From Sacculina carcini (taxonomy: Eukaryota; Arthropoda; Thecostraca; Sacculinidae): 64,000 nt of DNA. The notes beneath the pieces were generated by a model that was given only the letters and a program-made list of their open reading frames with translations, made no database searches and was not told the DNA's origin. Position 1 is the first letter of the stretch. Every line of letters begins with the position of its first letter. Positions 3,660 to 60,988 of the stretch are shown piece by piece. The stretch is taken from NCBI GenBank assembly GCA_916048095.2, contig OU696571.1, positions 7,262,001 through 7,326,000 on the forward strand, read 5' to 3'. The translations under genes and the position numbers were made by a program.

Positions 3660-4580
3660 TTAATTCAACTGTGAAAGAAGGTGAGAATGTAGCTGTTTCG
3701 AGAAGGATTTAAGCGAGGGAGAGGACAGTAGGTGAGATGGGAGGCTATTGTATATGCGAGGAGCAGCGTGTTGGAAGGAGCGTGTAAACCAAGAAGATTC
3801 ACAGTGACAACGAGGTTCAAGAAGGATTTTAGTTTGTCTTGTATCACGAGGACACGGATGTGGAGAAAGAAGTTCAAGTAAATACTGTGGAGAGTCAGGA
3901 GAATGCAAGAGTTTATAGGTGAGTGTGCAGATTTTGTGTTGAACGCGATAAGGAATAGGAAGAATACCAAGATCACGTAGATTGGATGATGTGGGATGAT
4001 GCGGAGGAAGGCGAAGAATGAAGCGGCAGGCTTGATTAAGGATATATTGTAAAATGTTGAGTGACTTCTGTGGAAGATGAAGAAACAGTGAATTACAGTA
4101 GTCAATACGAGGAATGATGAGAGCAGATACCAGAGATTGTGCAATTGATGAATCAATGTAGGGACGGATGAGGTAAAGGTTTCGAAGGATTAGACGGCAG
4201 GTGCCAGCTGTAGAAGTAAAATGTTTTTGAAATGACAAATGAGGATCTAGTAAGACACCGAGGTCACGTACTGATGAGGAAAGAGGAAAGTCAGATAGAG
4301 GAGGATGGATCTTTGGCGGGTGAAGTACGATGTATTGAGTTTTTGAGGAATTTATTATGAGCGAACGAGAAGAAGCCCACGCTGAGATATTATTCATGAT
4401 ATGAGGAATATAGTTTTGCTCAGACAGAGGAAGGAAGAACTGAACGTCATCTGCGTATATGTGAAAAGGAATAGATAAATTTCGTAGTATTGGACATAGA
4501 GATGTCATGTAAACGTTGAAAAGGATAGGACCAAGTGATGAGCCCTGGGGGACACCTGATGAAAGAGGGAAATTTTGAGA
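3660..4580 (-). pseudogene. LINE (L2/CR1-like) ORF2 C-terminal fragment
   Basis: About 300 codons are open on the minus strand. They start at the RT motif SSGVPQGSSLGPILFNVYM, continue through the catalytic box YADDVQF, then DYCNSLFLHLPQKSL (the thumb motif of L2/CR1 LINEs), and end at a stop near 3660. The layout matches the C-terminal half of the intact ORF2 at 54109-57015 but the sequence is diverged. The APE domain and N-terminal RT are absent (5' truncation). Upstream codons in the same frame belong to an unrelated repeat at 4620-4880 and are not part of the protein. Confidence 0.75.
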
Positions 4581-4619
4581 CCGAATAAAGACAAAAGTGA
4601 TGTAGAAGAGAATGACAAA

Positions 4620-4880
4620 AGTGTGTAGAATAAAGGTAAAAAACAAACACCAATAGAAAAATATATGATAATTACAATTACAATATTGGTAAGCTACACA
4701 TATCCACTCGAAAAACGCCTGTGGAACACGCACATGCACGACAATGTACTTATTTAAACACTCTGTTTTACTACGCACTCTGCACGCAACTGGACATTTG
4801 CAAACGCTCGCTGCAAACGCTCGCTGCAATGCACGTGAGTCATGGCATATCGACACACAGACACACACACCAATATACAC
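4620..4880 (+). repeat. 250-bp repeat, copy A
   Basis: This unit recurs in direct orientation at 5003-5270 and inverted at 5521-5764. It contains an AATTACAATTACAATATTGG block and ends in (CA)n-rich sequence. It lies inside the fold-back composite. Probably non-coding. Confidence 0.8.
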
Positions 4881-5002
4881 CAATTTGCCGTTCTGCACAC
4901 ACACACGTACGTTGAGCTTTATTATTATAGATATATAGATATATGCCTGAGGTGGCAATCTCGCATGGGCGTTTCTAGCAATCGCTCAACTGAATGGCGC
5001 AG

Positions 5003-20617: not shown

Positions 20618-23551
20618 CTACGCCGTGTAGTCGCTCATCCACTCAGGAGCCCGCCTTTCTCTTCCGGACCGACGAGGAAGTCGATCACTTCCCGGCTCAT
20701 GGTCAACCTGTTCACCTCCGACACCTTGATCTTCGTCTTCAGTTTCGCCGATCGACTCAACGACAACAGGACGTATATCCAGAACATGACGTGGAATACC
20801 ATCAACCGACACATTATTCCGCGAATGAACACCAGTCACGGTACCTCTGTTCCATTGTGAAGTGCACCGTCCGTCCGCCGGCTTCACCCAGACCTCTTCA
20901 CCAATTTCCACCGAACATCTCTCTTGGTTGCTCTCTGATGTAGTCTCTATGCATGGATGCCGCCACTCATAGTTATGCACATTACGATGAGGAATAGACG
21001 TGGGCTCCACACCAACTCTGGGTGACACATTGTACCAAAACACGGCCGTTGTTGGTGGTACCTGTGCTCTCTCAGCAAGCGCTTTTATGGTGCGGTGATG
21101 GCGCTCGACGATACCATTGCCGCTTGGGCGGTATGCAGCGCGATAAAATGGCATGATTTTCCACCGCCTCATCAGCTGCTTCATTTGTTGAGACCGAAAC
21201 ACACTGCTATTGTCCATGAGTAATTCACATACGGGTCCTCTCTCACGAAACACTTCATCAATATTCTTGCAAACCTGTTCAGCTGTGTCATTACGAAGTT
21301 CACGCCAGACTGCGAACCTGCCAGGACCGCAATCCACCATAGACAAATATTCACGGCCACGATAGTGTGTCACATCAATTGCCAATCTTCGGCAAGGCTC
21401 ACTTAGGTTCAGATGGCCTGGTGTATGAACCGCGGGTGCTGGGTCGATCGATTGGCAACGCTGACACCCTCGCACAACCCGCCGAACAACTTCTCGAGAT
21501 ACAGTGGGATCCACCTGTCGTGCCAAGAATAATGTGCGGTCAACTCCCATGTGATGCATGTTGTGCATTTCTCTCACGTCGTTCACAGATGTCATGCACA
21601 CATTCACGGTAGCTTCAGGACAGCGCGACGTATTTCTCGACCGCACCGCCGGCAATCCTAGCCACTGCTTTTTAACGCGAGTTAGTATATCCGCTTTATT
21701 TGCTGTCGTTGGAACACTGGTCACACTAACTCTCAATCCCAGCTCCGAAATCAAGTCACTCAGTATACTTAACCGTCGTTTCACGAGGATATCGGCTGCA
21801 CCCTTGGTCTTAACTCTTCTTTCTTTAGTGAACAGTATACCGACCCATCCAGCTACTGTAGCGGAATCTGTCCGAATCTCAATTTTCTCCAGCTTCCATT
21901 TCACTGCCAGATTCACTCCTTTCAACACAGCTTCTAATTCTGCAACATTGATGTGATGCACATCTTCCTTCTTCCTCTGCCACGATGCGTCCTCGACAAT
22001 AATTCCGTCAATTTCTATCGCTGCACCGATGGCAAGCATGCTGGCGTCACACCATACAATACCGTCATTAGTTTTTCGAACATGTCATGTTCCCCCCACT
22101 GGGTCATTCGCTATCACCCTCTCAACCATATCTTTTGTCATACGCAACACGTCATCCCCTACAACATCATCCCACTCGACACAATCAGCATGACGCTTGA
22201 GGTAGCTGCAAGCGGGCCTCAGCCATCCGGCGACGGGGTAGTGGCCGATCAACTTGCCACAAAGTGCGAACAATTGGCGTTTCGTCATATCGTCCGGTAC
22301 GGCAGGTACTACGTTCCCTCTGCGGTACACCAAATGCCCGTGCTCGCTCTTTTGCAGCTGCAACCCAAGAACAGCACTTTGCTCAATCGGCACCGGTGCT
22401 TTGGCTTTCAGCCCATACTTGGCTAGATGGTCAACTACCGCTGCACCTGACACTATCGACTCTCGCACAACGATATCGTCTATGTACGAATCCGTTGCTT
22501 CTTCAACCAGTGACGCTTGCTGTAGGACCGTACGCACAATTCAGGTCATGGCTTTAGGCGCAGAACACAACCCAAAACCCATTCTAGTCAGACAGTATAT
22601 ATTTCCATCATATTTCACTAATTGGTGTTTCCACAATTTTTCTGCTACGTGAACCTGGAGGTACGCAGCCTTCAAATCCACGATCGATACTGGTCCTTCA
22701 ATACGTCTCCATTATCTTAACTTTTCCCCGCATACATCAATAAATTCATCTCCAGTGTGACTGTGCAAAAAAGAGTTAAGCTCGCGGAAGTCCAATACTG
22801 GCCTAACTTTGTTCTTGGTAGGTTGAACGACCGCTAGCAATGGCAATACACCCATATTTTGCTTACCCGTCCAAGGCACCAAAATCTTCTCGTCAACCCA
22901 CCTACGCACCTCGGCCTCAAATTCTTCCCTCACAGCATCATCAAGTGTCCTCTCGTAACAACCAATTTTCCTTGTTAGTACCGGATTCTGCAATTTCGTT
23001 AACCATTCGACTTCCCACCTTTCACCATCAAACGACGCGCGAAAATCTGGATCCTCGATGCTCAGATTTCGCGGACCATCATTTCTACTGTTTTTCTCAC
23101 TCACATTTGGTACTGGCACGCTGTCACACTTCATCTCTATTGCACAACATGACTGTTGTCCGAATCGAACAGATTTCTCACTCACAGTCACTCCACCCAA
23201 ATGATTGATCAAATCCATTCCGACCACAATATCAATGTTGCTAACAAGCTCATCAACCACTATGGCCTTCACTTTCACATACCCATTCTGTACTCCCACT
23301 GTAATCCACGCTTCACCTCTACACTGCACTTGTCTACCATCAAACGCGAGCATCACACATTCACCGTCAATATATTTTACAAAGCTCGTTTTTACGACCA
23401 CAGCTGAACAACCAGTATCAATCAATGCCTTCGCCTTCATCTCATCTATCGTTACGTCAATAATTGGCAGACCTGACGATTGCGCCATTATTGGCTCATT
23501 GGAGTGACTGCTGGCGCACAAGCCACCCCACTCAAGTTTTCCGACTTGCAT
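20618..23551 (-). pseudogene. pol: pol of Ty3-like element (PR-RT-RH-IN), three stop codons
   Basis: One reading frame runs from 23551 to 20618 with no frameshift but three stops: TAA at 22712-22714, TGA at 22541-22543 and TGA at 22085-22087. In order: protease (ALIDTGCSAVVVK), RT (VRPVLDFRELNS, then YIDDIVV), RNase H (WCDAS, HINVAELEAV, TDSATV), integrase zinc finger (H-H then CQRC), and integrase core with Asp in AIDVTHYRG, Asp in LLMDNSSVF and Glu in GNGIVERHHRT. By comparison with the homologue at 58429-60817, the third stop replaces Trp. The basic, acidic-tailed C-terminus ends in RRAPEWMSDY. Confidence 0.85.
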
Positions 23552-24227
23552 TCAAATGACTTGTGTCCGTCTTTTCCGCACCGATAACACACGATTGGTT
23601 TACGTTTGCTACAGTAGCGTGCCATGTGAGGCCCTCTACACACGAAGCATCGTCCGGTGAATCTTCGCGGCGCAGCATTATCTCGCAGTGTGATTCCCTG
23701 GTCCCACTGACCGCTTCACCGGAGGCCACCACATTCACGGCTCTATTAGCAGCCAACACACGGGCATGGGCAATTAGCTCGCTGGTCGTCATCTTTAGAA
23801 CATTTGGTAAACGCTGAAGCGTGACTCTGATGTCGGCAGGAAATCCATTCACAAACGCAAGTCTCGTTGCATGCTCAACACCTGCATTATCGAAACTGGC
23901 CAGTCCAGCCAACCTTCTGATCTCATTGGCATATACATCAACAGATTCGCCGCTCCATCTTTTTTCACACAACTTTCTATGCGCCGTGAACGCATCATCC
24001 GTGAATGCTCCAATCAGCATTTGCTGAATCTGATCAGCATTGTCCTGGGCCTCTTCAGACAGCTCTAAATATAGCGCTAACGCATCCCCCTCAAGATACA
24101 GCGGAATGAAACTGGCTAGGTCAGATACACCTTGCAGCTTTGCTACCAACGTTGCTTTCTTCAACCACGCCACAACATCTCCATCGCCGGCAAACGCCCT
24201 GATCATATCGTGAGATATTTTTGGCAT
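23532..24227 (-). pseudogene. gag: gag of Ty3-like element, frameshifted before zinc knuckles
   Basis: A 231-aa frame opens at an ATG 15 nt inside the 5' LTR edge. The capsid-like part reads VVAWLKKATLVAKLQGVSDL, FIPLYLEGDALALYLEL and YANEIRRLAGLA. Two CCHC zinc knuckles (CFVCRGPHMARYC and CYRCGKDGHKSFEC) lie at about 23545-23630 in a different frame, so a 1-nt indel near 23650-23720 separates capsid from nucleocapsid. The protease frame starts in a third frame, overlapping the knuckles' end, which suggests normal gag-pol frameshifting in the ancestor. Confidence 0.75.
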
Positions 24228-24242
24228 TTTGGCCGGTTAGCT

Positions 24243-38995: not shown

Positions 38996-41953
38996 CTAAC
39001 TTGCATCGGCTCTCATGTCCAACAGCAAGTGTCGACGATTCCTTCGCGTGATCCGTCCACTCGGCATGCGAAGAGTGTAGCTACGGTGTCCGTTGGAGCC
39101 GACAATCACGCCTCGTCGGTCCCAACGTTGAGACGTCTGGTCTTGGATGTACACCGAACTACCTACAGGAAGACGTGGCAGAGTACGCGCAGTCACGTTG
39201 TACCTCGTCTCCGCCTTACGCTGCTCCTCCTCCCCCACTGCGTCGTAGACATCAGCTTTGCGCTGCCACTCGGGGGCGTATGATGACGAGTGCGCCGGAA
39301 CAGACGATCGCATCGGGTGCCCTAAGACGATTTGGGCCGGCGACCGTCCATCTCGACCGGGCGAATTCCGCATCTCCAGAAGACCTTCTGTCACGGCATC
39401 ATCGTCCAGATTTCCGTTGGTCGACGCTTTTTGGAGCAGGCGTTTGATGCGCTTCACGGCAGACTCTGCATGTCCGTTACTTTGCGGGAACTCCGGACTG
39501 CTGACTGAATGTTCGACATGCCAGCGCTGCAAAAACATCTTTGTTCTGCGCGCCATAAACTGTGGTCCCCCATCGCTTCGCAGGCGATTTGGGACGCCAT
39601 ACAAAGCAAAAAGCTGTCGCAGAGTTCTAATCAGGTGCCGGAAGGTGGCGTCACTTCGGGGGCACTCCACACCGAGAGGCCAATTGGAGAGTCTGTCCAC
39701 ATGCACTAGGTACGTCCGGCCACCATACTGGAAATAGTCCGACGACACGCTTTCAAAAATTCTAGACGGCTTATCGTCGTTTCGCCAAGGTTCCTTTGGC
39801 AGACTATTGTGGTACTGCTTGCACATTTCACATGATGTTACGGCCATTTTAATGTCGTTTGCAATTGTCGGCCAGTACACTGATTGTCTAGCTCTCTGAG
39901 TTGTCTTCACTATTCCCTGGTGCGAGCTGTGGAGGCTCTTGATGATCGTGGCTCTCATTTCTCGTGGGATGACTAACCGGCAACCGTTCAGTATGATCGG
40001 ACCATCCAGTCTCAATTCATGGCGGGCGTTCCAATACGGAACGCCCGCCATGAATTGAGTCTGGATGTCAACGCTGTCTTCGCACATATGACGTTCTGCC
40101 GGGAATCCTTTGTGAATCGCCTCTCGCAGGTGTTGATACTCTTCGTCTCTTGCAGCTGCTTCCAGCACTGAGGACAGAAGTGCATCGCCAATGTTGGATT
40201 CCAGATTCGGTTGGTCATTGTTCACGACACAAGTAATTGTCAGGGAATGCTCGTGTAGGTCTTTTGATTCTTCCCCTGCCAGATTTTCATTGTCCACCGC
40301 GGGCAAAGGTGATCTTGATAAACTGTCGGCAACGATATGATCTTTCCCGGCTCTCCACATTTCATCGAATTGTAGGTGGGAAAGTTTGCCGCGAAGTCGT
40401 TGAAGACGTGGATTGTCGATGTCTGCAAGACTTTTCGAATTCAGTATCGGTAATAAGGGTTTATGGTCCGTTATGATTGTGAAGCGAGGAGCGGCGGCCA
40501 AATACACATTTGCCTTGTGGCATGCCCACACAACCGCTAACATTTCCTGTTCTATTGCGGCGTAACGAGATTCCGTATCGGTCAGTGCTCGTGAGCCGCA
40601 TTGCACCATGCGCCATATTTTGTTTCCATCTTGTTGTTTGACGACAAACCCTAGACCATGCAGGTGCGCTGCGTCCGTTTCCACGACTGTGGGACGTTTC
40701 GGATCGTATAAATCTAGAATCGGTGGCGATGTGAGAGCTTTCTTGGTTGCTTCGAACGCTTGCGTTTGCACCTCATCCCAATGCCACTCTACGTTTTTCT
40801 TCAACAGTTCGCGGATAGGCGCTGTGGCGTTGGCGATTTCTGTCGAGAAATTACTGAGCTGGTTAGCGAGACCTAAAAAAGATCTGACTCGTGACTGATT
40901 CGTCGGAATCGGAAAGTCGACTATTGTAGCAACTTTATTTCGGTCCACCGTGTAACCACTTTTATCTATGCGAAATCCACAGAAGAGTGCAGACGACCGC
41001 CCAAACGAGAACTTTTCTTCGTTCAGCGTGATACCGTTCTCCTCACATCGTTGCAGTACGCTCCACACGTCTTCTAAGTGGGAATCGTACTTTTCGTCGC
41101 TTATCAGCATATCGTCTACGACCTGCGAAAGACGGTTACACCCAGACAACGCCATGGAACAGCGGTGGTTAAACACATCGCCGCTGGATACGAGACCCAT
41201 GGGAGCGCGTTTCAGGCGATATCGCCCCCACGGTGGCATGAAGCAGGTCAGATCACGATCGTCCTCGTGAATCGGTATTTGAAAATACCCCTGCTTGGCG
41301 TCCATCGTAGTGAAATACTTGGAATGCGTTGGTATTTCAGACACCGCGTGCAACGGCACGGTGACTGGGTACGACGGTCGACGCACGTACTTGTTTAGTT
41401 TCGTCAAATCCACCGTCAGTCGACATCCTACCATCTTACCGGTGTTGTCACGCTTTGGCACTGGCACTATCGGGCTGCACCATTCGGTAGGATGGATCAC
41501 TTTTTCTACTATATCTTGACGCTCCAATTCGTCCAGACTGGTTTTGATGTGCCGACGATACGCGACCGGGATTTTCCTCGGCGCATGGATGCTGTGTGGC
41601 TTGGCTTCCTGCTCAAGCTCTATCCGCATGGGTGGACCTACCATACATGGAAGGGTCCCTTCAGGTCTGAACACTTTCAGGAATCTGTTTTTGAAGAGAA
41701 CAGCATGTTCATCCCGTTCATGAGCGGTCGGCTCTCTATTTGATGTCCAGCGCGGTCGTTCGCTGCGATTTTCTTCGTCTGCGCGACCGCAGGAACCTTC
41801 AGTACTCGCAGGACCACTGATGGAATCGCCCATTTTCTCATGTTTCACAGAAGCACGTGCCATTGTGAGCTGCTGTGGAAACGTTTTGTGTATGATGTCC
41901 AGATCCACAGCGTCGCACCACGAAAGCAGTGAGTCCGTAGCGGCTGGCACCAC
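38996..41953 (-). CDS. pol: Gypsy pol: RT-RNase H-integrase, intact 985 codons
   Basis: An uninterrupted frame. RT motifs: WCSPIVPVPKRDNTGK, CRLTVDLTKLNKYV, FTTMDAKQGYFQI, and the catalytic box VDDML in place of the usual YxDD. RNase H: VVETDAAHLHGLGFV, AIEQEMLAVVWACHK, ITDHKPLLPIL. Integrase: zinc-binding Cys pair in CEMCKQYH, core Asp in SSDYFQYGGRTYLVHVD, second Asp in LRSDGGPQFMA, Glu in SNGHAESAVKRIK. The N-terminus starts at the tail of the protease (VVPAATDSLLSWCDAVDLDI). The first in-frame codon is not ATG, and the region upstream holds one TGA. Translation of this copy as it stands is uncertain. Confidence 0.9.
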   Translation of the reverse strand: MVPAATDSLLSWCDAVDLDIIHKTFPQQLTMARASVKHEKMGDSISGPASTEGSCGRADEENRSERPRWTSNREPTAHERDEHAVLFKNRFLKVFRPEGTLPCMVGPPMRIELEQEAKPHSIHAPRKIPVAYRRHIKTSLDELERQDIVEKVIHPTEWCSPIVPVPKRDNTGKMVGCRLTVDLTKLNKYVRRPSYPVTVPLHAVSEIPTHSKYFTTMDAKQGYFQIPIHEDDRDLTCFMPPWGRYRLKRAPMGLVSSGDVFNHRCSMALSGCNRLSQVVDDMLISDEKYDSHLEDVWSVLQRCEENGITLNEEKFSFGRSSALFCGFRIDKSGYTVDRNKVATIVDFPIPTNQSRVRSFLGLANQLSNFSTEIANATAPIRELLKKNVEWHWDEVQTQAFEATKKALTSPPILDLYDPKRPTVVETDAAHLHGLGFVVKQQDGNKIWRMVQCGSRALTDTESRYAAIEQEMLAVVWACHKANVYLAAAPRFTIITDHKPLLPILNSKSLADIDNPRLQRLRGKLSHLQFDEMWRAGKDHIVADSLSRSPLPAVDNENLAGEESKDLHEHSLTITCVVNNDQPNLESNIGDALLSSVLEAAARDEEYQHLREAIHKGFPAERHMCEDSVDIQTQFMAGVPYWNARHELRLDGPIILNGCRLVIPREMRATIIKSLHSSHQGIVKTTQRARQSVYWPTIANDIKMAVTSCEMCKQYHNSLPKEPWRNDDKPSRIFESVSSDYFQYGGRTYLVHVDRLSNWPLGVECPRSDATFRHLIRTLRQLFALYGVPNRLRSDGGPQFMARRTKMFLQRWHVEHSVSSPEFPQSNGHAESAVKRIKRLLQKASTNGNLDDDAVTEGLLEMRNSPGRDGRSPAQIVLGHPMRSSVPAHSSSYAPEWQRKADVYDAVGEEEQRKAETRYNVTARTLPRLPVGSSVYIQDQTSQRWDRRGVIVGSNGHRSYTLRMPSGRITRRNRRHLLLDMRADAS

Positions 41954-42125
41954 ATAAAGTTTGGTGCGACATGAAGCATCTCACAGTGTGAGTACAGCAC
42001 TGCATGCGCCGAGGCAATTCAGACGGCTACCATTGGCAGAACAGAGGCGGTCCTGACACGCAGTCAACTTCTGACAATCCAGGCCAACCTTCCGAGCAGT
42101 GACCGCGTTGATGACGCTCACTTCC
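41954..42125 (-). pseudogene. Remnant of gypsy protease
   Basis: The minus strand reads GEVSVINAVTARKVGLDCQK and LCSANGSRLNCLGACSAVLTL, the part of a gypsy protease just after the missing D-T/S-G. It then reaches a TGA at about 41977 and continues into the long pol frame. The catalytic Asp-Thr-Gly lies in the deleted part. Confidence 0.65.
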
Positions 42126-53040: not shown

Positions 53041-54108
53041 ATGACCACGGACATCTGCGTCATATGCAAGACCGGCGGTGGTGACTCCACGAGATGTGTC
53101 ACATGTTCGCTCTGTGACTCATGGGCGCACACTAAGTGCGCGTCGTTGCAGGGGGTGAAACTGGACTCTCTTAAGTCCATCAATTGGATTTGCTCTCCAT
53201 GCATTGGTCGCGCCAAGCTGGCCATTGACATTGCCGGCAATGTGGGTGGTTTCGGTGCCCGGCTGTCCTCCATAGAGTCGAAAATTTCTTCGCTGGCGAC
53301 TGCCTCGGTCTCTCCTCCGCCGATTTCTGCATTTCCGTTGACTGGTACTGAGAGAGTCCCTGTGCGCTCCTATACTGTCGTTGTCAAGTCGCGTGGTTCT
53401 TCTCCTGTGGTCGCTGAGTCGGTGGCTCCGGCACTCGCGGATATCCCGGTTGCAAGTTCTCGCCCGACTGCCAGCGGTGGGCTTGTTCTGCGCTGCAATT
53501 CGTCTGCTGATGCTGTGCGTGCCGCTGATTGCGTTCGCTCGGCGCTGCCCGATACTGACGTCAGTGTTCCGGCGGACTCTCCTCGGCAACCTAGGATTAC
53601 GCTTGCGCATGTGCCTGTCGATATTTCAGCCGAAGATATAGTCGCCTCCCTCAAGAGGAAAAATTCATTTCTGTCGGCTGTTTCGTCCTCTGAACTTCAT
53701 CTGCTTTTCTTGACGAAACCCAAGACCTCAGGCGTTCATGCGGTGTTTTCTTTGTCACCGAAATGCCGCTCTTTGATCCGCTCTATGGGAGACCGGTTGT
53801 TCGTGGGCTTGCAGTCGTGTGCGGTGTACGACCGCTTCTGGGTAGCTCGCTGCTTCCGCTGTGCTGGTCTTGGCCACAAGGCCATCCACTGTAATCACCC
53901 TGAATCTTGTGGACATTGTGCAGGTCCTCATCGGTCCTCTCAATGTGATCGTACTGGGGCAGCTAAATGCCGCAACTGTGCTCAGGCAGGACGTCCTCAC
54001 TCCCACTCGTCTTTCAGCTCCTCTTGCCCTTCATTCATCGGTGTGCGTAATTCTCTTCGCCTCCGCACTGCGACTGATGATTCTCCTGTTGCTTCTCCCC
54101 AGGCTTGA
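53041..54108 (+). CDS. LINE ORF1: PHD-like finger and CCHC knuckles, 355 aa
   Basis: I choose the ATG at 53041 (context GCCATGA), directly before the zinc finger. Residues 5-55 form a PHD-like finger (CVICKTGGG, CVTCSLCDSWAHTKC, WICSPC). A middle Ser/Val-rich region precedes an RRM-like stretch (ITLAHVPVDISAEDIVASLK), then CCHC knuckles (CFRCAGLGHKAIHC, CGHCAGPHRSSQC, CRNCAQ). This is an RNA-binding ORF1p as in CR1/L2 LINEs. It ends with TGA in the context GCT-TGA-CTA-CTT and shares its frame with ORF2. Confidence 0.88.
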   Translation: MTTDICVICKTGGGDSTRCVTCSLCDSWAHTKCASLQGVKLDSLKSINWICSPCIGRAKLAIDIAGNVGGFGARLSSIESKISSLATASVSPPPISAFPLTGTERVPVRSYTVVVKSRGSSPVVAESVAPALADIPVASSRPTASGGLVLRCNSSADAVRAADCVRSALPDTDVSVPADSPRQPRITLAHVPVDISAEDIVASLKRKNSFLSAVSSSELHLLFLTKPKTSGVHAVFSLSPKCRSLIRSMGDRLFVGLQSCAVYDRFWVARCFRCAGLGHKAIHCNHPESCGHCAGPHRSSQCDRTGAAKCRNCAQAGRPHSHSSFSSSCPSFIGVRNSLRLRTATDDSPVASPQA

Positions 54109-54111
54109 CTA
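54106..54111 (+). promoter_or_regulatory. Candidate stop-codon readthrough signal UGA-CUA
   Basis: TGACTA at the ORF1/ORF2 boundary. UGA followed by CUA is the best-known leaky stop context in animal mRNAs. The downstream frame is open for 968 codons and has no ATG in roughly its first 460 codons, so readthrough would be the simplest way to make ORF2. Confidence 0.6.
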
Positions 54112-57015
54112 CTTCCCCTTTCTCACCACTCCTCTCACTCTACTGTTGCTACCCCTATTACTTTCCCTCCAACATCCCGTCCTTCTCATCTCTCCATTGG
54201 GCTTCTTAACATTCGTTCCTGCAGAAATAAAACTCTTCCGATCTGTAATTTAATCTCTTCATTCAATCTCTCTATTTTGTGTTTAACTGAAACCTGGCTT
54301 CTCGATTCTGATGTTTCTTCTTTCGCTGCAAATATTCCCTCCTCTTACAATTTCTTGCACAAATCTCGCTCACATTCTAAATCTTCTGGCGGTGGTGTTG
54401 GCTGTATATTTTCCAAGTCTTTCTCTGTTTCTCCTGTAAATGACCTGATTCCGGATTGCTCCTCATTTGAATTCCTTGCACTCTCCCTTGCTGTTCCTTC
54501 TTTCTCTAAATTTTGTTTTTTGATAGTCTACCGTCATAATCACCCTGGCTCATCTCCTCTTTTCCTTAACGAATTTCCTTACCTCATCGATGCTGTCTCC
54601 TCGCGTTTCTCCAGCGACTTCATCGTCGTAGGGGATTTCAATTTCTGGGTTGACTCCCCATCCAATAATCCTTACTGTCAAAACTTCATTTCTCTTCTTC
54701 AGGCACTCGGTCTATCAATTTTGAATTCTTCTCCTACTCACATATCTGGTCACTCTCTTGACCTATTTCTCTCTCCCGCTCCCGCTATCTCCTCAGACCG
54801 TCCTCCTCCTGATGTTTTCACATTGCCTTCTGATCCAAATATTTCTGACCATTGCCTCTTGATTTCTTCACTTCCTTTCTCCCGTGCTGCTTGTCCTCCA
54901 CCATGCTCATATCGCAATTACAAACAGTTTGATCCTGCTAAATTTACTTCACTTTTATCTTCCTTACTTCCTCTCGACCGCTTCTACTGGCTCCCTCTCC
55001 GCGATATTTTTCCAGCCATTTCAGATGTTCTCTCAGGTATAAATGATTTTTTGTTTCCTTTGGTCACTCGGTCTAAACCTCTCACTTCTTCTCCCCCTTG
55101 GTTCTCCTCTCATCTTCATTCTCTTAAACATACTCAGCGGCGTGCCGAAACTGTCTGGAGAAGAACTCGATCTTCACAGGATTGGGAACTACTTTGCTCT
55201 GCCCGGTCGTCTTATGTTTCTGCATTACATATTGCCAAACAGGATTTTTACAAATCCAAACTTGCTTCCCTTTCCCGTTCTTCTAAATCGCTTTGGTCCT
55301 CTCTCAATTCTCTCTGCGGTCTCCGATCTCCTTCTACCTCGTGTGATCTTACAGCCTCTCAGTTTGCGTCTTTTTTCTCTGCAAAAATTGATTCTGTTCT
55401 AAAGAATATCCCTCCTTTCCGATCCTCCCTCTGTCATACTCGCACTTCCGAAAATTTTCCTTCATTTTCTTTTGTCTCGCTTCCTGACATTCTCCACCTT
55501 TTGTCTTCAATCAAGATGTCCCACTCTCCCTCGGACTCAATTAATTTTCGAGCTATTTCTGTGTCTCTTCCTTCTCTTGTGCCTTACCTTCTCCACCTTA
55601 TCAACTCTTCTTTTCTGCATGGTGTTTTCTTGCCAGACAAACATGCTATTGTTCGACCCATTATAAAAAAACCTACTCTTGATCCCGCTGCTCTCACCAA
55701 TTACCGTCCTATATCTCTCCTCAGTCTTCCCTCCAAACTCCTTGAATCCGCTATTTCATTGCAACTCTCTCCTTACATCTCTAAATTCCTTGACCCGTGT
55801 CAATCTGGTTTCCGCTCTGCTCACTCTACTGAATCTGTACTTATTTCCTTGTGTAATGATACCCTTTCACACTTCTCCTACCGTCAATCTGTCCTCTTGG
55901 TATTACTTGATCTGTCCTCGGCTTTTGATCTTGTTAGTCACCCTATTATTATTCGTGATCTTTCCTGTTTGGGTCTATCTTCTTCCGCCCTTTCTCTTCT
56001 GAAATCTTACCTCACTGATCGTACTTACTCAGTTGACTTCAATTCCTCTACCTCTGCTCACTTCCCTCTTCGATCTGGTGTTCCCCAAGGTTCCGTCCTT
56101 GGCCCACTATTATTTAATCTTTATATGTCTTCTCTTTGCCCTGTTCTTCGAAAACATTCCATTACTTTCAAAATCTATGCCGATGACATCCAATTCCTCA
56201 TTCCTGTCACTCCTGATACTCCCTCCTTTCTCTCTGATATACTTTCTGAAATTTCCTCATGGGCCGCCTCTCGGCAGTTGTACTTGAATACTTCTAAGTC
56301 TGAGTTCATCGTCCTTCATCCACCTCGTATTTCACCTCCTCTTCTCCCATTTCCTATCTCAACTGCTGTTCGCAATCTCGGCTCTATCTTTGTCTCTTCG
56401 CTCTCCTGCTTTGACAATATCGTTTCTGTCGCCCGCACTTGTCGTCTTATTCTGCGCTCTCTCTACCCTATACGTCCCTATCTTGATAAAAATTCCGCCA
56501 TCACTCTTGTTCATACTCTCATTTTCCCCAGGTTAGACTACTGCAACTCGCTTTACTTTAGTGCTCCTCGTTCTCATCTCTTAATCCTTCAGCGTGTGAT
56601 CAACCAATCTTGTCGATTTGTCTTTCATCCTACCTTTTCTCGCCACACGTCTCACCTACTTTTTCAACTCCACTGGCTTCCTATCATCCCACGAATTCAT
56701 TTTCGCCTTTGCTGTCTCATTTACAAGCTTCTGCATGATCCTCACCAACCTTCTTATCTTGCTAATCTTTTGTCTCCCACTGACTCACACTCCTCTCGTC
56801 GCCCTCTTTCTCTCGCTTGTCCTCGTGCATCTAATGAATCTTCCTGGTCCTCTAAATCGTTCTTCTTTTACGCCCCTCGCTTGTATAATTCTCTTCCCTC
56901 TCATATCACCCGCGCCTCTTCATTTCGGTCATTCCGCCATCGGCTTCGCCTGTACCTTTTTGACATTTCATTTGATCCCGTCTCTCACTCTCTCTCTCCT
57001 TTCGCCTCTCTGTGA
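54109..57015 (+). CDS. LINE ORF2: APE endonuclease and reverse transcriptase
   Basis: 968 codons follow the ORF1 stop in the same frame. APE domain: GLLNIRSCRNK, CLTETWL, GGGVGCIF, VVGDFNFWVDSPSN, SDHCLLISS. RT: KKPTLDPAALTNYRPISLLS, LLDLSSAFDLVSHP, SGVPQGSVLGPLLFNLYM, IYADDIQFLIP, NLGSIF. Thumb: LDYCNSLYFSAPRSHLL; the C-terminus is CW-poor and ends FASL. The layout fits the L2/CR1 group. The frame lacks an early ATG, so it is probably translated as an ORF1-ORF2 fusion. Diverged relatives lie at 1655, 3660 and 43640. Confidence 0.9.
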   Translation, partial: LLPLSHHSSHSTVATPITFPPTSRPSHLSIGLLNIRSCRNKTLPICNLISSFNLSILCLTETWLLDSDVSSFAANIPSSYNFLHKSRSHSKSSGGGVGCIFSKSFSVSPVNDLIPDCSSFEFLALSLAVPSFSKFCFLIVYRHNHPGSSPLFLNEFPYLIDAVSSRFSSDFIVVGDFNFWVDSPSNNPYCQNFISLLQALGLSILNSSPTHISGHSLDLFLSPAPAISSDRPPPDVFTLPSDPNISDHCLLISSLPFSRAACPPPCSYRNYKQFDPAKFTSLLSSLLPLDRFYWLPLRDIFPAISDVLSGINDFLFPLVTRSKPLTSSPPWFSSHLHSLKHTQRRAETVWRRTRSSQDWELLCSARSSYVSALHIAKQDFYKSKLASLSRSSKSLWSSLNSLCGLRSPSTSCDLTASQFASFFSAKIDSVLKNIPPFRSSLCHTRTSENFPSFSFVSLPDILHLLSSIKMSHSPSDSINFRAISVSLPSLVPYLLHLINSSFLHGVFLPDKHAIVRPIIKKPTLDPAALTNYRPISLLSLPSKLLESAISLQLSPYISKFLDPCQSGFRSAHSTESVLISLCNDTLSHFSYRQSVLLVLLDLSSAFDLVSHPIIIRDLSCLGLSSSALSLLKSYLTDRTYSVDFNSSTSAHFPLRSGVPQGSVLGPLLFNLYMSSLCPVLRKHSITFKIYADDIQFLIPVTPDTPSFLSDILSEISSWAASRQLYLNTSKSEFIVLHPPRISPPLLPFPISTAVRNLGSIFVSSLSCFDNIVSVARTCRLILRSLYPIRPYLDKNSAITLVHTLIFPRLDYCNSLYFSAPRSHLLILQRVINQSCRFVFHPTFSRHTSHLLFQLHWLPIIPRIHFRLCCLIYKLLHDPHQPSYLANLLSPTDSHSSRRPLSLACPRASNESSWSSKSFFFYAPRLYNSLPSHITRASSFRSFRHRLRLYLFDISFDPVSHSLSPFASL

Positions 57016-58428: not shown

Positions 58429-60760
58429 TTAAACTTCATCATCGGATAGACGCACGTACTCGTTTAACCATGCCGGCGGTCGACGTCTCCTCGTTGACCG
58501 CCTCGGCTGCTCGACTGCAGCCTCATCCTTGACTCTCTCAGCCGCGACGCCCTCTCCGACATTCTCTCGAGCAGTATGTACACTCACGTCCTCTGAAGGC
58601 TCACCAGGCTCCTGCTCCACCGACGCACGGCCCGCATCCACGCCCTCGCAAATAGCCAGTCGCTCAGGTGGCAGGCTGTTAGGTGTTCTGTCACCGCCGG
58701 GACTATCGGCCGCCTCGTCCCGTCCGCCATTGCCGCTCAGGTCCAAGCTACACCGGGTGGCTCCGCCGGGTGGCTCCACATCTCCGCGATTGCCGGTCTC
58801 ATCCACATCCCAACCGCCGCTGGTCGGTTCCACGTCGCCATGAGTGCCGGTCTCGTGTATGGCTCCACTATGGCCGGCACAGCGACGCTTGCGCAGGTCG
58901 CGCACATGGCGCGGCATGCTATCTACGCACACAACGTGCTGTGAGACGACCCTGGTCACCTTGCCGAGGGTCCACGGCGTTGTACATGACGGGATCGGCG
59001 GTTTCACCCACACTTCGTCACCAACGGCAAACGCTGCTGTCTGGTCATCAGCGTCCCTGCGGCCGGTCTCAAATGGAAGACGCGACTCGTATCTGAAAAT
59101 ACACCTCGAGGGAATAGTGCTCACCTGAGTCTCTTTGCGCGGCGTAACTTTGTACCAGAACGTCGCCTCCTCCGGGGAAATATGTCCCCTCGCTGCGATC
59201 CTTTTGATCGTACGGTGATTTCGCTCCACGATCCCGTTACCGCCCGGGGCGTATGCGGCTCGGAATAGCAAAGAGATGCACCACTCGTCGGCGAACTGCT
59301 CCATCGCCGCCGAACTGCTCCATCGCCGCCGATCGGAACGCCGTCGAGTTGTCCAGTAACAGCTCCTCAAACGGCCCACGCCCAATCACAATCTGCCGCA
59401 ACTGAGCTATAATGCACAACGCCGTCTCATTCGGCAATCTGCGCCATACGGCAAGACGTGATGTACCACAATCCAGCATGGACAGGTAAACGCCGGCATC
59501 GTAATGAGTGACGTCCGCTGCCACTCGATACCAGTCCCTGTCCACGGCCAGACTACCCTGACCTACGAGGTTCTCCTCTCTCAACGCTGGATCAATACGT
59601 TGACAAGCCTCGCATCCAGCTAACTCCTCCTTCACATGGGCTCTCGTCAAGTCACTCCGCAATTGTTGACCCAGGTACAACGTCCTCTCGACACCTAAAT
59701 GATGGGGCAGATGAACCGCCCAAACGGTGTCCTTGATACTCTTCTTCTTCGTAGCAATAGCTGCTGATATTGCCACCTCCTCCTCACCAGCGTCACGATG
59801 AACAAGCCACTTCTTGGCCACCCTGGTCATCTGATCAGCTTTATTCTCCACCGTCGTGACGAACCGGAGAGAAACTGTCAGGCCATGCTCGGCGATCGTC
59901 TCCTTAATCACCGCCAGTCGGCGCTTCACCAGCATCTCGGCAGAACCTTTAGTGCGGACACGGTTGCGCCCCTCGACAGTGCTGTCCATCCAACTAAGCA
60001 CTGTCCTCGAGTCTGTCGCGACGGTAAACGTCTTGAACCCCCACGAAATCGCCATATTGATGCCACGACCGACTGCCTCCAGTTCGGAAACATTGATGTG
60101 TAGGACGTCGGTCTTCTTACGGAGCCAAGTAGCATCCTCAACGATGCAGCCGTCCACCTCGACCACCACGCCAAGCGCCAGCGTGCTCGCGTCAGTCCAT
60201 ACAGTGACGTCTCCAGCTGCGTTCACGTCCCATCGACCCTTTACCGGGTCCGCCTTCTGAACACGCTGCAACAGCTCAGACACGAGCACACACACAACAT
60301 TCTCCACCGGGTTATCCCACGTCCCGCCACACCCCAACCGTTTCAAAAATCTGCAATGGGGGCGTAACCACCCGTCAACGGGGTAATGGCCGACTAAGCG
60401 ACCACATACGGAGAACAACCCACGCTTGGTCAGCCCTGTCAATTCGGCTGCAGCATCACGAAGAGCTGTCCCTCTCGACATATTCAACCACCCATCGGTT
60501 CCCTTCCTCAGAGCAATTCCCAATAATCGACCCCCATCTAGTCCCTCCGGCTCCTTAGTCTCAAAGCCATACCTTCGCAGATGCTCCCGAAGCTGCTGCA
60601 CGCTCACATCGGACGTCCTCACGATGATATCGTCGACATAATGATCTGTCGCCTTTCGCACCTTCTCGTCCAATGACAGGACCTTTCGCAGAATCAGCGT
60701 CATTATTCTTGGTGCACATGACAGGCCGAAGCCCAGCCGCGTCAACGCATAATGCACACC
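58429..60760 (-). pseudogene. pol: RT(C-half)-RNase H-integrase of Ty3-like element, frameshifted
   Basis: RT from ALTRLGFGLSCAPRIMTLIL and YVDDIIVR. Connection: GRLVGHYPVDGWLRPHCRFL. RNase H: VTVWTDASTLALGVVVEVDG, HINVSELEAVGRGINMAI, ATDSRTVLSWM. Integrase: HHLGVERTLYLG, CEACQRIDP, core Asp in AADVTHYDAGVYLSMLD, Asp in LLLDNSTAFRSAAM, Glu in GNGIVERNHRTIKRI. A 19-bp tandem duplication (59293-59311 = 59312-59330) shifts the frame between second Asp and Glu. The open frame begins at 60817 within LTR-derived sequence. Confidence 0.85.
59293..59330. repeat. 19-bp tandem duplication in integrase
   Basis: GAACTGCTCCATCGCCGCC occurs twice in direct succession. Since 19 is not a multiple of 3 it breaks the integrase frame; without it the flanking frames would be continuous. 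Confidence 0.9.
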
Positions 60761-60988
60761 AACCGAATGACGCTCGACCGCTCGTAAAGCCAGCTTCACA
60801 CACGCCAGCTGATACACGCCTCCGGCACTAGTCTCAAGTCGCGGCCAATCAGCGCGCAGTAACGTGCGACGTCATACCTCGCACCACTCGACTCAAGTGA
60901 ACCTCTATGACGTCACACCGCACGCCACTCGACAACAACGTCACTCGAACGTTCTAGAACGTTCAGTGGCGTCCAAACTAACGCCACA
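60756..60988 (-). repeat. Truncated 5' LTR of Ty3-like element
   Basis: It matches 58138-58371 with a few substitutions. The first about 120 bp (+ strand left part) are missing at the deletion joint with RT. Confidence 0.88.

What the first reader, a model, noticed from the sequence alone, without database searches (positions are those of the whole stretch)
54103..54300. LINE ORF1 and ORF2 separated by a single leaky-looking UGA-CUA stop
Seen: ORF1 (53041-54108) ends GCT-TGA, the next codon is CTA, and the same frame then stays open for 968 codons covering APE and RT. No ATG occurs in that frame for roughly the first 460 codons, while the conserved APE start (GLLNIRSCRNK) lies within 40 codons of the stop. 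Known: UGA CUA is a high-readthrough context in animals, and LINE ORF2s are usually reached by overlap, reinitiation or an IRES. Inference: this family makes an ORF1-ORF2 fusion by programmed readthrough, like MLV gag-pol but on UGA.
Basis: partly seen in the sequence, partly recalled or inferred. Interest (0 to 1): 0.82.

Follow-up and report, generated by a model that had tools for sequence, protein, structure and literature searches.

The report
LINE polymerase behind a leaky stop
A family of jumping genes in what looks like an arthropod genome appears to keep a leaky stop signal between its two proteins, so that a few ribosomes run on and make a fused protein carrying the copying enzyme; some relatives appear to do the same job with a frameshift signal instead.

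Summary
ORF1 (53041-54108) ends TGA, the next codon is CTA, and the same frame stays open for 968 codons (APE, RT) with no ATG until codon 470. It is not a point mutation: 36 of 36 focal junctions read (27 young, 9 more diverged copies) have TGACTA. From capped hit lists I found 18 LINE families of this genome with ORF2 in frame with ORF1: 18 of 18 have UGA-C, 16 of 18 UGA-CUA, in flanks that no longer align. Synonymous sites are saturated, and the APE upstream of the first ATG is under purifying selection. No conserved 3' RNA structure is predicted. Programmed UGA readthrough giving an ORF1-ORF2 fusion is the best explanation; I have no protein or ribosome data. ORF1 and APE trees disagree: g1044 has an x53-like ORF1 but a g950-like ORF2, as if an ORF1 had been swapped together with its decoding signal. 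Exceptions: family L has UGA-CUU/CUC, g950 UGA-CGU; three families have in-frame ATGs in the spacer.

The parts
53041..54108 (+). ORF1 (355 aa plus stop), Gag-like protein with PHD finger and a Cys/His cluster
53056..53202 (+). PHD finger of ORF1 (residues 6-54)
   Evidence: Pfam PF00628, E 6.1e-6, above cut-off
53851..54027 (+). Zinc-knuckle-like Cys/His cluster near the end of ORF1
   Evidence: read by eye, ends approximate; no Pfam zf-CCHC match for this copy
54106..54111 (+). UGA stop plus CUA: proposed readthrough signal
   Evidence: 16 of 18 families UGA-CUA, 18 of 18 UGA-C
54109..54198 (+). 30-codon spacer between stop and APE, open in frame, no ATG in any frame
54109..57015 (+). ORF2 (968 aa plus stop), in frame with ORF1, no initiator ATG
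54205..54852 (+). APE endonuclease domain (residues 33-248 of ORF2)
   Evidence: Pfam PF03372, E 1.9e-11
55663..56358 (+). Reverse transcriptase domain (residues 519-750 of ORF2)
   Evidence: Pfam PF00078, E 7.8e-34

Best explanation
The element is an APE-type LINE whose ORF2 has no start codon of its own. Most ribosomes stop at the UGA and release the ORF1 protein; a minority decode UGA with a near-cognate tRNA, helped by the adjacent CUA, and continue in frame through a Ser/Pro-rich spacer into APE and RT, giving an ORF1-ORF2 fusion analogous to retroviral Gag-Pol. Shown: the stop, the shared frame, conservation of the hexamer, selection on the APE. Inferred: that readthrough happens, its rate (UGA-CUA alone supported 1.5% in human cells, PMC4132726 abstract), and that the fusion is the active form.
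For: UGA in 18 of 18 in-frame families, C after it in 18 of 18, CTA in 16 of 18, while the neighbouring codons (-8 to -1, +2 to +8) take 10-16 different forms. CTA is only 0-2.3% of codons in eight ORFs of four families. Synonymous sites between these four families are saturated (pS 0.69-0.80, pN 0.22-0.49). APE codons 31-270, before the first focal ATG, are constrained (pN 0.22-0.28, pS 0.74-0.80). In 18 of 18 families the stop that ends ORF1 is also the only in-frame stop before the APE; 12-13 would be expected in the 619 spacer codons from base or dinucleotide composition, and the other two frames hold 10 and 33 in 601 each. Relatives reach the same fusion through A_AAA_AAC and the -1 frame.
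Against: No expression, proteomic or ribosome data. No conserved 3' structure (pseudoknots not modelled). Two families lack CUA: L (UGA-CUU in 25, UGA-CUC in 8 of 33 copies) and g950 (UGA-CGU in 3 of 3); one old f58 copy reads UGA-CUG (L067). Families f64, E and C have in-frame ATGs in the spacer, in E directly after CTA. The families are related, come from one genome and from capped hit lists, so they are not independent trials and others may differ.
Confidence: 0.88

Rival explanations
1. Termination-reinitiation: ribosomes stop at UGA and restart nearby on a non-AUG codon (or on an AUG in the few families that have one), making a separate ORF2 protein, as in SART1.
For: SART1 couples ORF2 to a stop-start site, and an unconventional termination-reinitiation has been proposed for L1 (PMC5972666, passages). 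E has TGA-CTA-ATG; f64 and C have in-frame ATGs in the spacer.
Against: Reinitiation needs neither UGA, nor CUA, nor the same frame, yet UGA-C is in 18 of 18 and the frame is shared in 18 of 18; 15 of 18 have no in-frame ATG before the APE; the -1 families carry a slippery heptamer at the exact spot.
Confidence: 0.07
2. Internal ribosome entry, or a separate transcript with non-AUG initiation near the APE.
For: No initiator AUG is seen, and a review considers an unknown, AUG-independent initiation likely for mammalian LINE ORF2 (PMC5009743 section 13).
Against: Does not explain UGA-CUA, the shared frame, or a spacer open right back to the stop. No conserved structure.
Confidence: 0.02
3. UGA is sense in this host (reassignment), or this UGA is edited to UGG or spliced out.
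For: None found; in principle each removes the stop.
Against: Full-length ORF1 and ORF2 of four families hold no other TGA in 5361 codons against 11-13 TGG per element (a weak test, since the copies were chosen for open frames), and ORF2 itself ends in TGA in 3 of 4. No fold near the stop for A-to-I editing, and none of these predicts a conserved CUA after the stop.
Confidence: 0.02
4. A dead copy with a nonsense mutation.
For: Would be the default for one locus.
Against: TGACTA in 36 of 36 focal junctions examined and in 15 other families.
Confidence: 0.01

Closest known systems
Alphavirus UGA-CUA readthrough and UGA-CUAG mammalian readthrough genes such as OPRL1 (PMC4132726, abstract and passages)
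   Same: UGA followed by CUA, same-frame extension; in alphaviruses the polymerase lies downstream of the stop (recalled)
   Different: LINE, not virus or host gene; the base after CUA is free and no conserved 3' structure is predicted
Murine leukaemia virus gag-pol (PMC5009743, passages)
   Same: Gag-like protein and RT separated by one in-frame stop; fusion by readthrough
   Different: MLV uses UAG and a stimulatory pseudoknot; here UGA-CUA in an APE LINE
SART1 LINE, UAAUG stop-start (PMC5972666, passages and reference title)
   Same: LINE ORF2 translated by coupling to the ORF1 stop
   Different: SART1 restarts at an AUG overlapping the stop and needs a downstream structure; here no AUG and no structure seen
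Candida Tca2 (LTR element; PMC2194720 start of abstract in a listing, PMC7175516 passages)
   Same: gag and pol separated by a UGA stop
   Different: LTR copia-type element; a study found no evidence of readthrough there, as PMC7175516 reports
2A (StopGo) LINEs of trypanosomes and sea urchin (PMC5972666 passages)
   Same: A non-standard decoding step in LINE expression
   Different: 2A separates products without a stop codon; here a stop codon would limit a fusion
Jockey-superfamily LINEs with ORF1 type IC, PHD-RRM-CCHC (PMC4120745, passages)
   Same: PHD and zinc knuckles in ORF1, APE-RT in ORF2, known reticulate ORF1 history
   Different: 'stop codon' and 'same frame' do not occur in that text; decoding mode is not discussed in the passages seen
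Retroviral A_AAA_AAC -1 frameshift sites, such as MMTV gag-pro (recalled, no call)
   Same: Heptamer identical in g1044 and x53, in the right register
   Different: LINE; the ORF1 stop abuts the heptamer; no nested 3' structure predicted

Membership tests
APE-type LINE, CR1/L2/Jockey superfamily | APE endonuclease and RT in one ORF | tested here: met
   Pfam PF03372 and PF00078 above cut-off
APE-type LINE, CR1/L2/Jockey superfamily | Clade placement in an RT tree with named reference elements | not tested
   No named reference set was used
ORF1 type IC (PHD-RRM-CCHC) | PHD finger | tested here: met
   Above cut-off in the focal copy and f64; below cut-off in f58, no match in f63
ORF1 type IC (PHD-RRM-CCHC) | CCHC knuckles | tested here: inconclusive
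   Motif seen by eye; Pfam zf-CCHC below cut-off in f58 and h974 and no match in the focal copy
ORF1 type IC (PHD-RRM-CCHC) | RRM domain | tested here: inconclusive
   No Pfam RRM match; the authors used HMM-HMM comparison, which I did not run
Programmed stop-codon readthrough, UGA-CUA class | UGA followed by CUA | tested here: met
   Focal and 16 of 18 families
Programmed stop-codon readthrough, UGA-CUA class | Same-frame extension under protein-coding selection | tested here: met
Programmed stop-codon readthrough, UGA-CUA class | 3' stimulatory RNA structure (present in some members) | tested here: not met
   z-scores from -2.9 (f63, 120 nt; -0.4 at 180 nt) to 2.1, most within 1.3 of zero; none shared between families
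Programmed stop-codon readthrough, UGA-CUA class | Measured readthrough product | not testable with these tools
   No expression data
-1 programmed frameshift (g1044, x53 only) | X_XXY_YYZ heptamer in the zero frame, downstream ORF in -1 | tested here: met
   A_AAA_AAC before TAA (g1044, 2 of 2 copies) or TGA (x53, 3 of 3 copies), ORF2 in -1
-1 programmed frameshift (g1044, x53 only) | Downstream structure | tested here: not met
   z -0.8 to 1.3; pseudoknots not modelled
SART1-like stop-start reinitiation | AUG overlapping or touching the ORF1 stop | tested here: not met
   None in the focal family; of 18 families only E has an ATG close by, after CTA

The most novel reading that the evidence does not exclude
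A whole radiation of LINEs makes its APE-RT only as an ORF1-ORF2 fusion through recoding, and what is conserved is the fusion while the decoding device is exchangeable: UGA-CUA readthrough in most families, -1 frameshift at A_AAA_AAC in others, the device travelling with the ORF1 module when ORF1 is swapped between lineages (g1044 = x53-type ORF1 on a g950-type ORF2). These LINEs would be Gag-Pol-like in expression.
Probability: 0.62. Interest if true: 0.86.

Novelty: new variant of a known kind. Interest (0 to 1): 0.78.

Why it matters
How LINE ORF2 is translated is a long-standing question; answers proposed so far include reinitiation, AUG-independent initiation and 2A. A conserved leaky stop gives a directly testable mechanism and a predicted fusion protein. 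A switch between readthrough and -1 frameshift among related elements in one genome would be a natural experiment on why retroelements keep a low ratio of enzyme to structural protein.

Tried and rejected
Rejected: nonsense mutation; an alphavirus-like 3' stem; UGA as a general sense codon (a weak test); ATG avoidance as evidence (4, 7 and 0 ATGs in the three spacer frames, about 4 expected in frame 0). That the spacer holds no in-frame stop is partly by definition (I measured back from the APE to the nearest stop); the real result is that this stop is also the one that ends ORF1. Led nowhere: COX1 search for the host (nothing); P0005 search (not completed); a first folding script crashed and was rerun; one search translated one base out of frame and was redone.

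Panel: 41 loci of 18 families were given; 39 could be read (L118 has no stop, L111 ends before the APE): 32 TGA-CTA, 4 TGA-CTT/CTC (L), 3 TGA-CGT (g950). Fetched loci left out of that panel: L020, L022, L036, L051, L085 (no junction); L064-L069 (older f58 copies: 5 of 6 hold TGACTA, one of these out of frame; L067 TGACTG); L070-L078 (counted separately); L094 (frameshifted C copy); L090 and L091 (family B, decayed x53 relatives with AAAAAAC); further copies of f64 (8 of 8 TGACTA), f58 (5 of 5), f63 (5 of 7; L050 sense, L051 no junction), f59 (4 of 4). P and Q copies were merged into K, M and O into L, L095 into D60. J and K share 82% of their junction flanks, so 17 is the fairer number of separate lineages. 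Genome searches score only part of their candidates (for example 144 of 3161), so more families may exist. In the x53 pattern the heptamer was part of the pattern and every one of the 31 hits had already spent the one mismatch, so '31 of 31 keep AAAAAAC' is biased and is not used; 2 of the 31 have lost the stop. The L pattern fixed TGA, so mainly its next codon is informative. AU tests were chosen after seeing pairwise identities; the APE tree has 110 columns.
Full report
What is there. The window lies in a 264-Mb eukaryotic assembly. For the host's HSP70 (best 120 of 7993 hits listed), the closest named single-HSP70 proteins are from the barnacle Pollicipes (90% and 89%), followed by many insects and crustaceans, so the host is probably an arthropod, perhaps a crustacean; the species is unknown. 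At 53041-57015 sits a LINE with long open frames. ORF1 (355 aa) has a PHD finger and a Cys/His cluster read by eye. It ends GCT TGA; the next codon is CTA and the frame continues for 968 codons with APE and RT domains. The first in-frame ATG is codon 470, while the APE begins at codon 31.

It is a family trait. A 601-base junction query gave 40 scored copies (of 204 candidates) at 99-100%. Of 30 loci from the APE search, 27 carry the junction and 27 of 27 read TGACTA; of 9 further copies at 92-98% protein identity 9 of 9 do, one of them frameshifted. In the 63% family a pattern leaving the hexamer free found 61 copies: 58 TGACTA and 3 with one base of the UGA changed. One of these three (L050) and one J copy (L118) have one fused frame, so fused copies arise but are rare where counted.

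It is conserved between families. Searches with APE, RT and ORF1 ends, whose hit lists are capped, and fetches gave 18 families with ORF2 in frame with ORF1. All 18 have UGA followed by C; 16 have CUA; L has CUU or CUC (25 and 8 of 33 copies) and g950 has CGU (3 of 3). Codons around this hexamer take 10-16 forms among 18 families, and each family's best flank identity to another is 0.38-0.56 except J/K at 0.82. Between the four families with full reading frames, ORF2 is 60-66% and ORF1 38-57% identical with saturated synonymous sites. CTA is 0-2.3% of codons. So one stop codon and one particular codon after it persist where the surroundings have changed beyond alignment.

ORF2 is translated from the junction on. 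APE codons 31-270, upstream of the first focal ATG, show pN 0.22-0.28 against pS 0.74-0.80. The spacer itself is unconstrained (pN 0.44-0.61) but in 18 of 18 families holds no further in-frame stop between the ORF1 stop and the APE, where 12-13 would be expected over 619 codons; the other frames hold 10 and 33 in 601 each. Fifteen of 18 have no in-frame ATG there; f64, E and C do, and E has one directly after CTA, which leaves reinitiation open for E.

No RNA structure. Folding 60-240 nt 3' of the stop gave z-scores from -2.9 to 2.1, most within 1.3 of zero; the lowest is f63 at 120 nt, not seen at 180 nt. Pseudoknots were not modelled. The signal seems to be the hexamer alone. In human cells UGA-CUA alone supported 1.5% readthrough and one UGA-CUAG gene (OPRL1) about 31% (PMC4132726, abstract and passages).

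Relatives that seem to frameshift. In g1044 (2 copies read) and x53 (3 copies read) ORF2 lies in the -1 frame, and ORF1 ends TC A_AAA_AAC followed at once by TAA (g1044) or TGA (x53); x53 has no in-frame ATG in the 36 codons between heptamer and APE. That this is a classical -1 slippery heptamer is recalled knowledge. The end product would again be an ORF1-ORF2 fusion.

ORF1 and its signal appear to move as a module. g1044 and g950 are 82% identical over the APE start (98 positions) and about 79% over the RT query, but 35% in ORF1; g1044 and x53 are 53% in ORF1. In the ORF1 tree the two frameshifting families are one clade (100/99) and g1044+g950 is rejected (AU p 0.0004); in the APE tree g1044+g950 is a clade (99/98) and g1044+x53 is rejected (p 0.022, 110 columns only); the tests were chosen after seeing the identities. 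Decoding mode changes once on the ORF1 tree and twice on the APE tree. Reticulate ORF1 history in this superfamily is known (PMC4120745, passages); that a decoding signal travels with it I did not see described.

What is known. Ten searches of open-licence PMC papers were answered (lists capped, empty). None of the titles and abstract openings listed describes a LINE using stop-codon readthrough or a -1 slippery site between ORF1 and ORF2. A recoding review describes the expression of TART polyprotein as unknown and of mammalian LINE ORF2 as an unknown initiation (PMC5009743, section 13). Zorro3 depends on its first ORF2 ATG (PMC1965478, passages). Subscription papers and Repbase reports were not searchable, so earlier description there cannot be excluded.

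Verdict. The wider finding, a group of LINE families with interchangeable recoding devices for one fusion, goes beyond it. All of it is sequence inference from a single genome.

Noticed in passing
window 3660-4985, minus strand: 5'-truncated copy of the related g950 LINE family (96-98% to copies with 950-codon frames); it led to the frameshifting families.
   Followed up: yes
window 53041-57015 and L042, L047, L054: ORF2 coding strands are 68-71% pyrimidine while the ORF1s of the same elements are 57-59%; no explanation.
   Followed up: no
L126 (family N) and L047 (f63): N and f63 are sisters in the ORF1 tree (99/97) but N groups with f58/F/f59 in the APE tree (86/85), a possible second ORF1 swap.
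   Followed up: partly
G000 contig C30, about 5.29-5.45 Mb: Six ORF1 hits and seven RT hits of g1044 type lie within about 155 kb, as if locally duplicated.
   Followed up: no
L050 and L118: Copies of families f63 and J with a sense codon in place of the stop and one fused ORF1-ORF2 frame; natural comparison for whether constant fusion harms spread.
   Followed up: partly
window 20618-24236, 38996-41980 and 58429-60871, minus strand: Long frames resembling LTR-retrotransposon polyproteins (judged by eye from the translation, no family search run); the window looks very rich in transposons.
   Followed up: no
P0005 (unnamed database protein, 42% identical): A more distant relative whose predicted protein starts with Met shortly before the APE; it may initiate ORF2 differently, DNA not available.
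   Followed up: no
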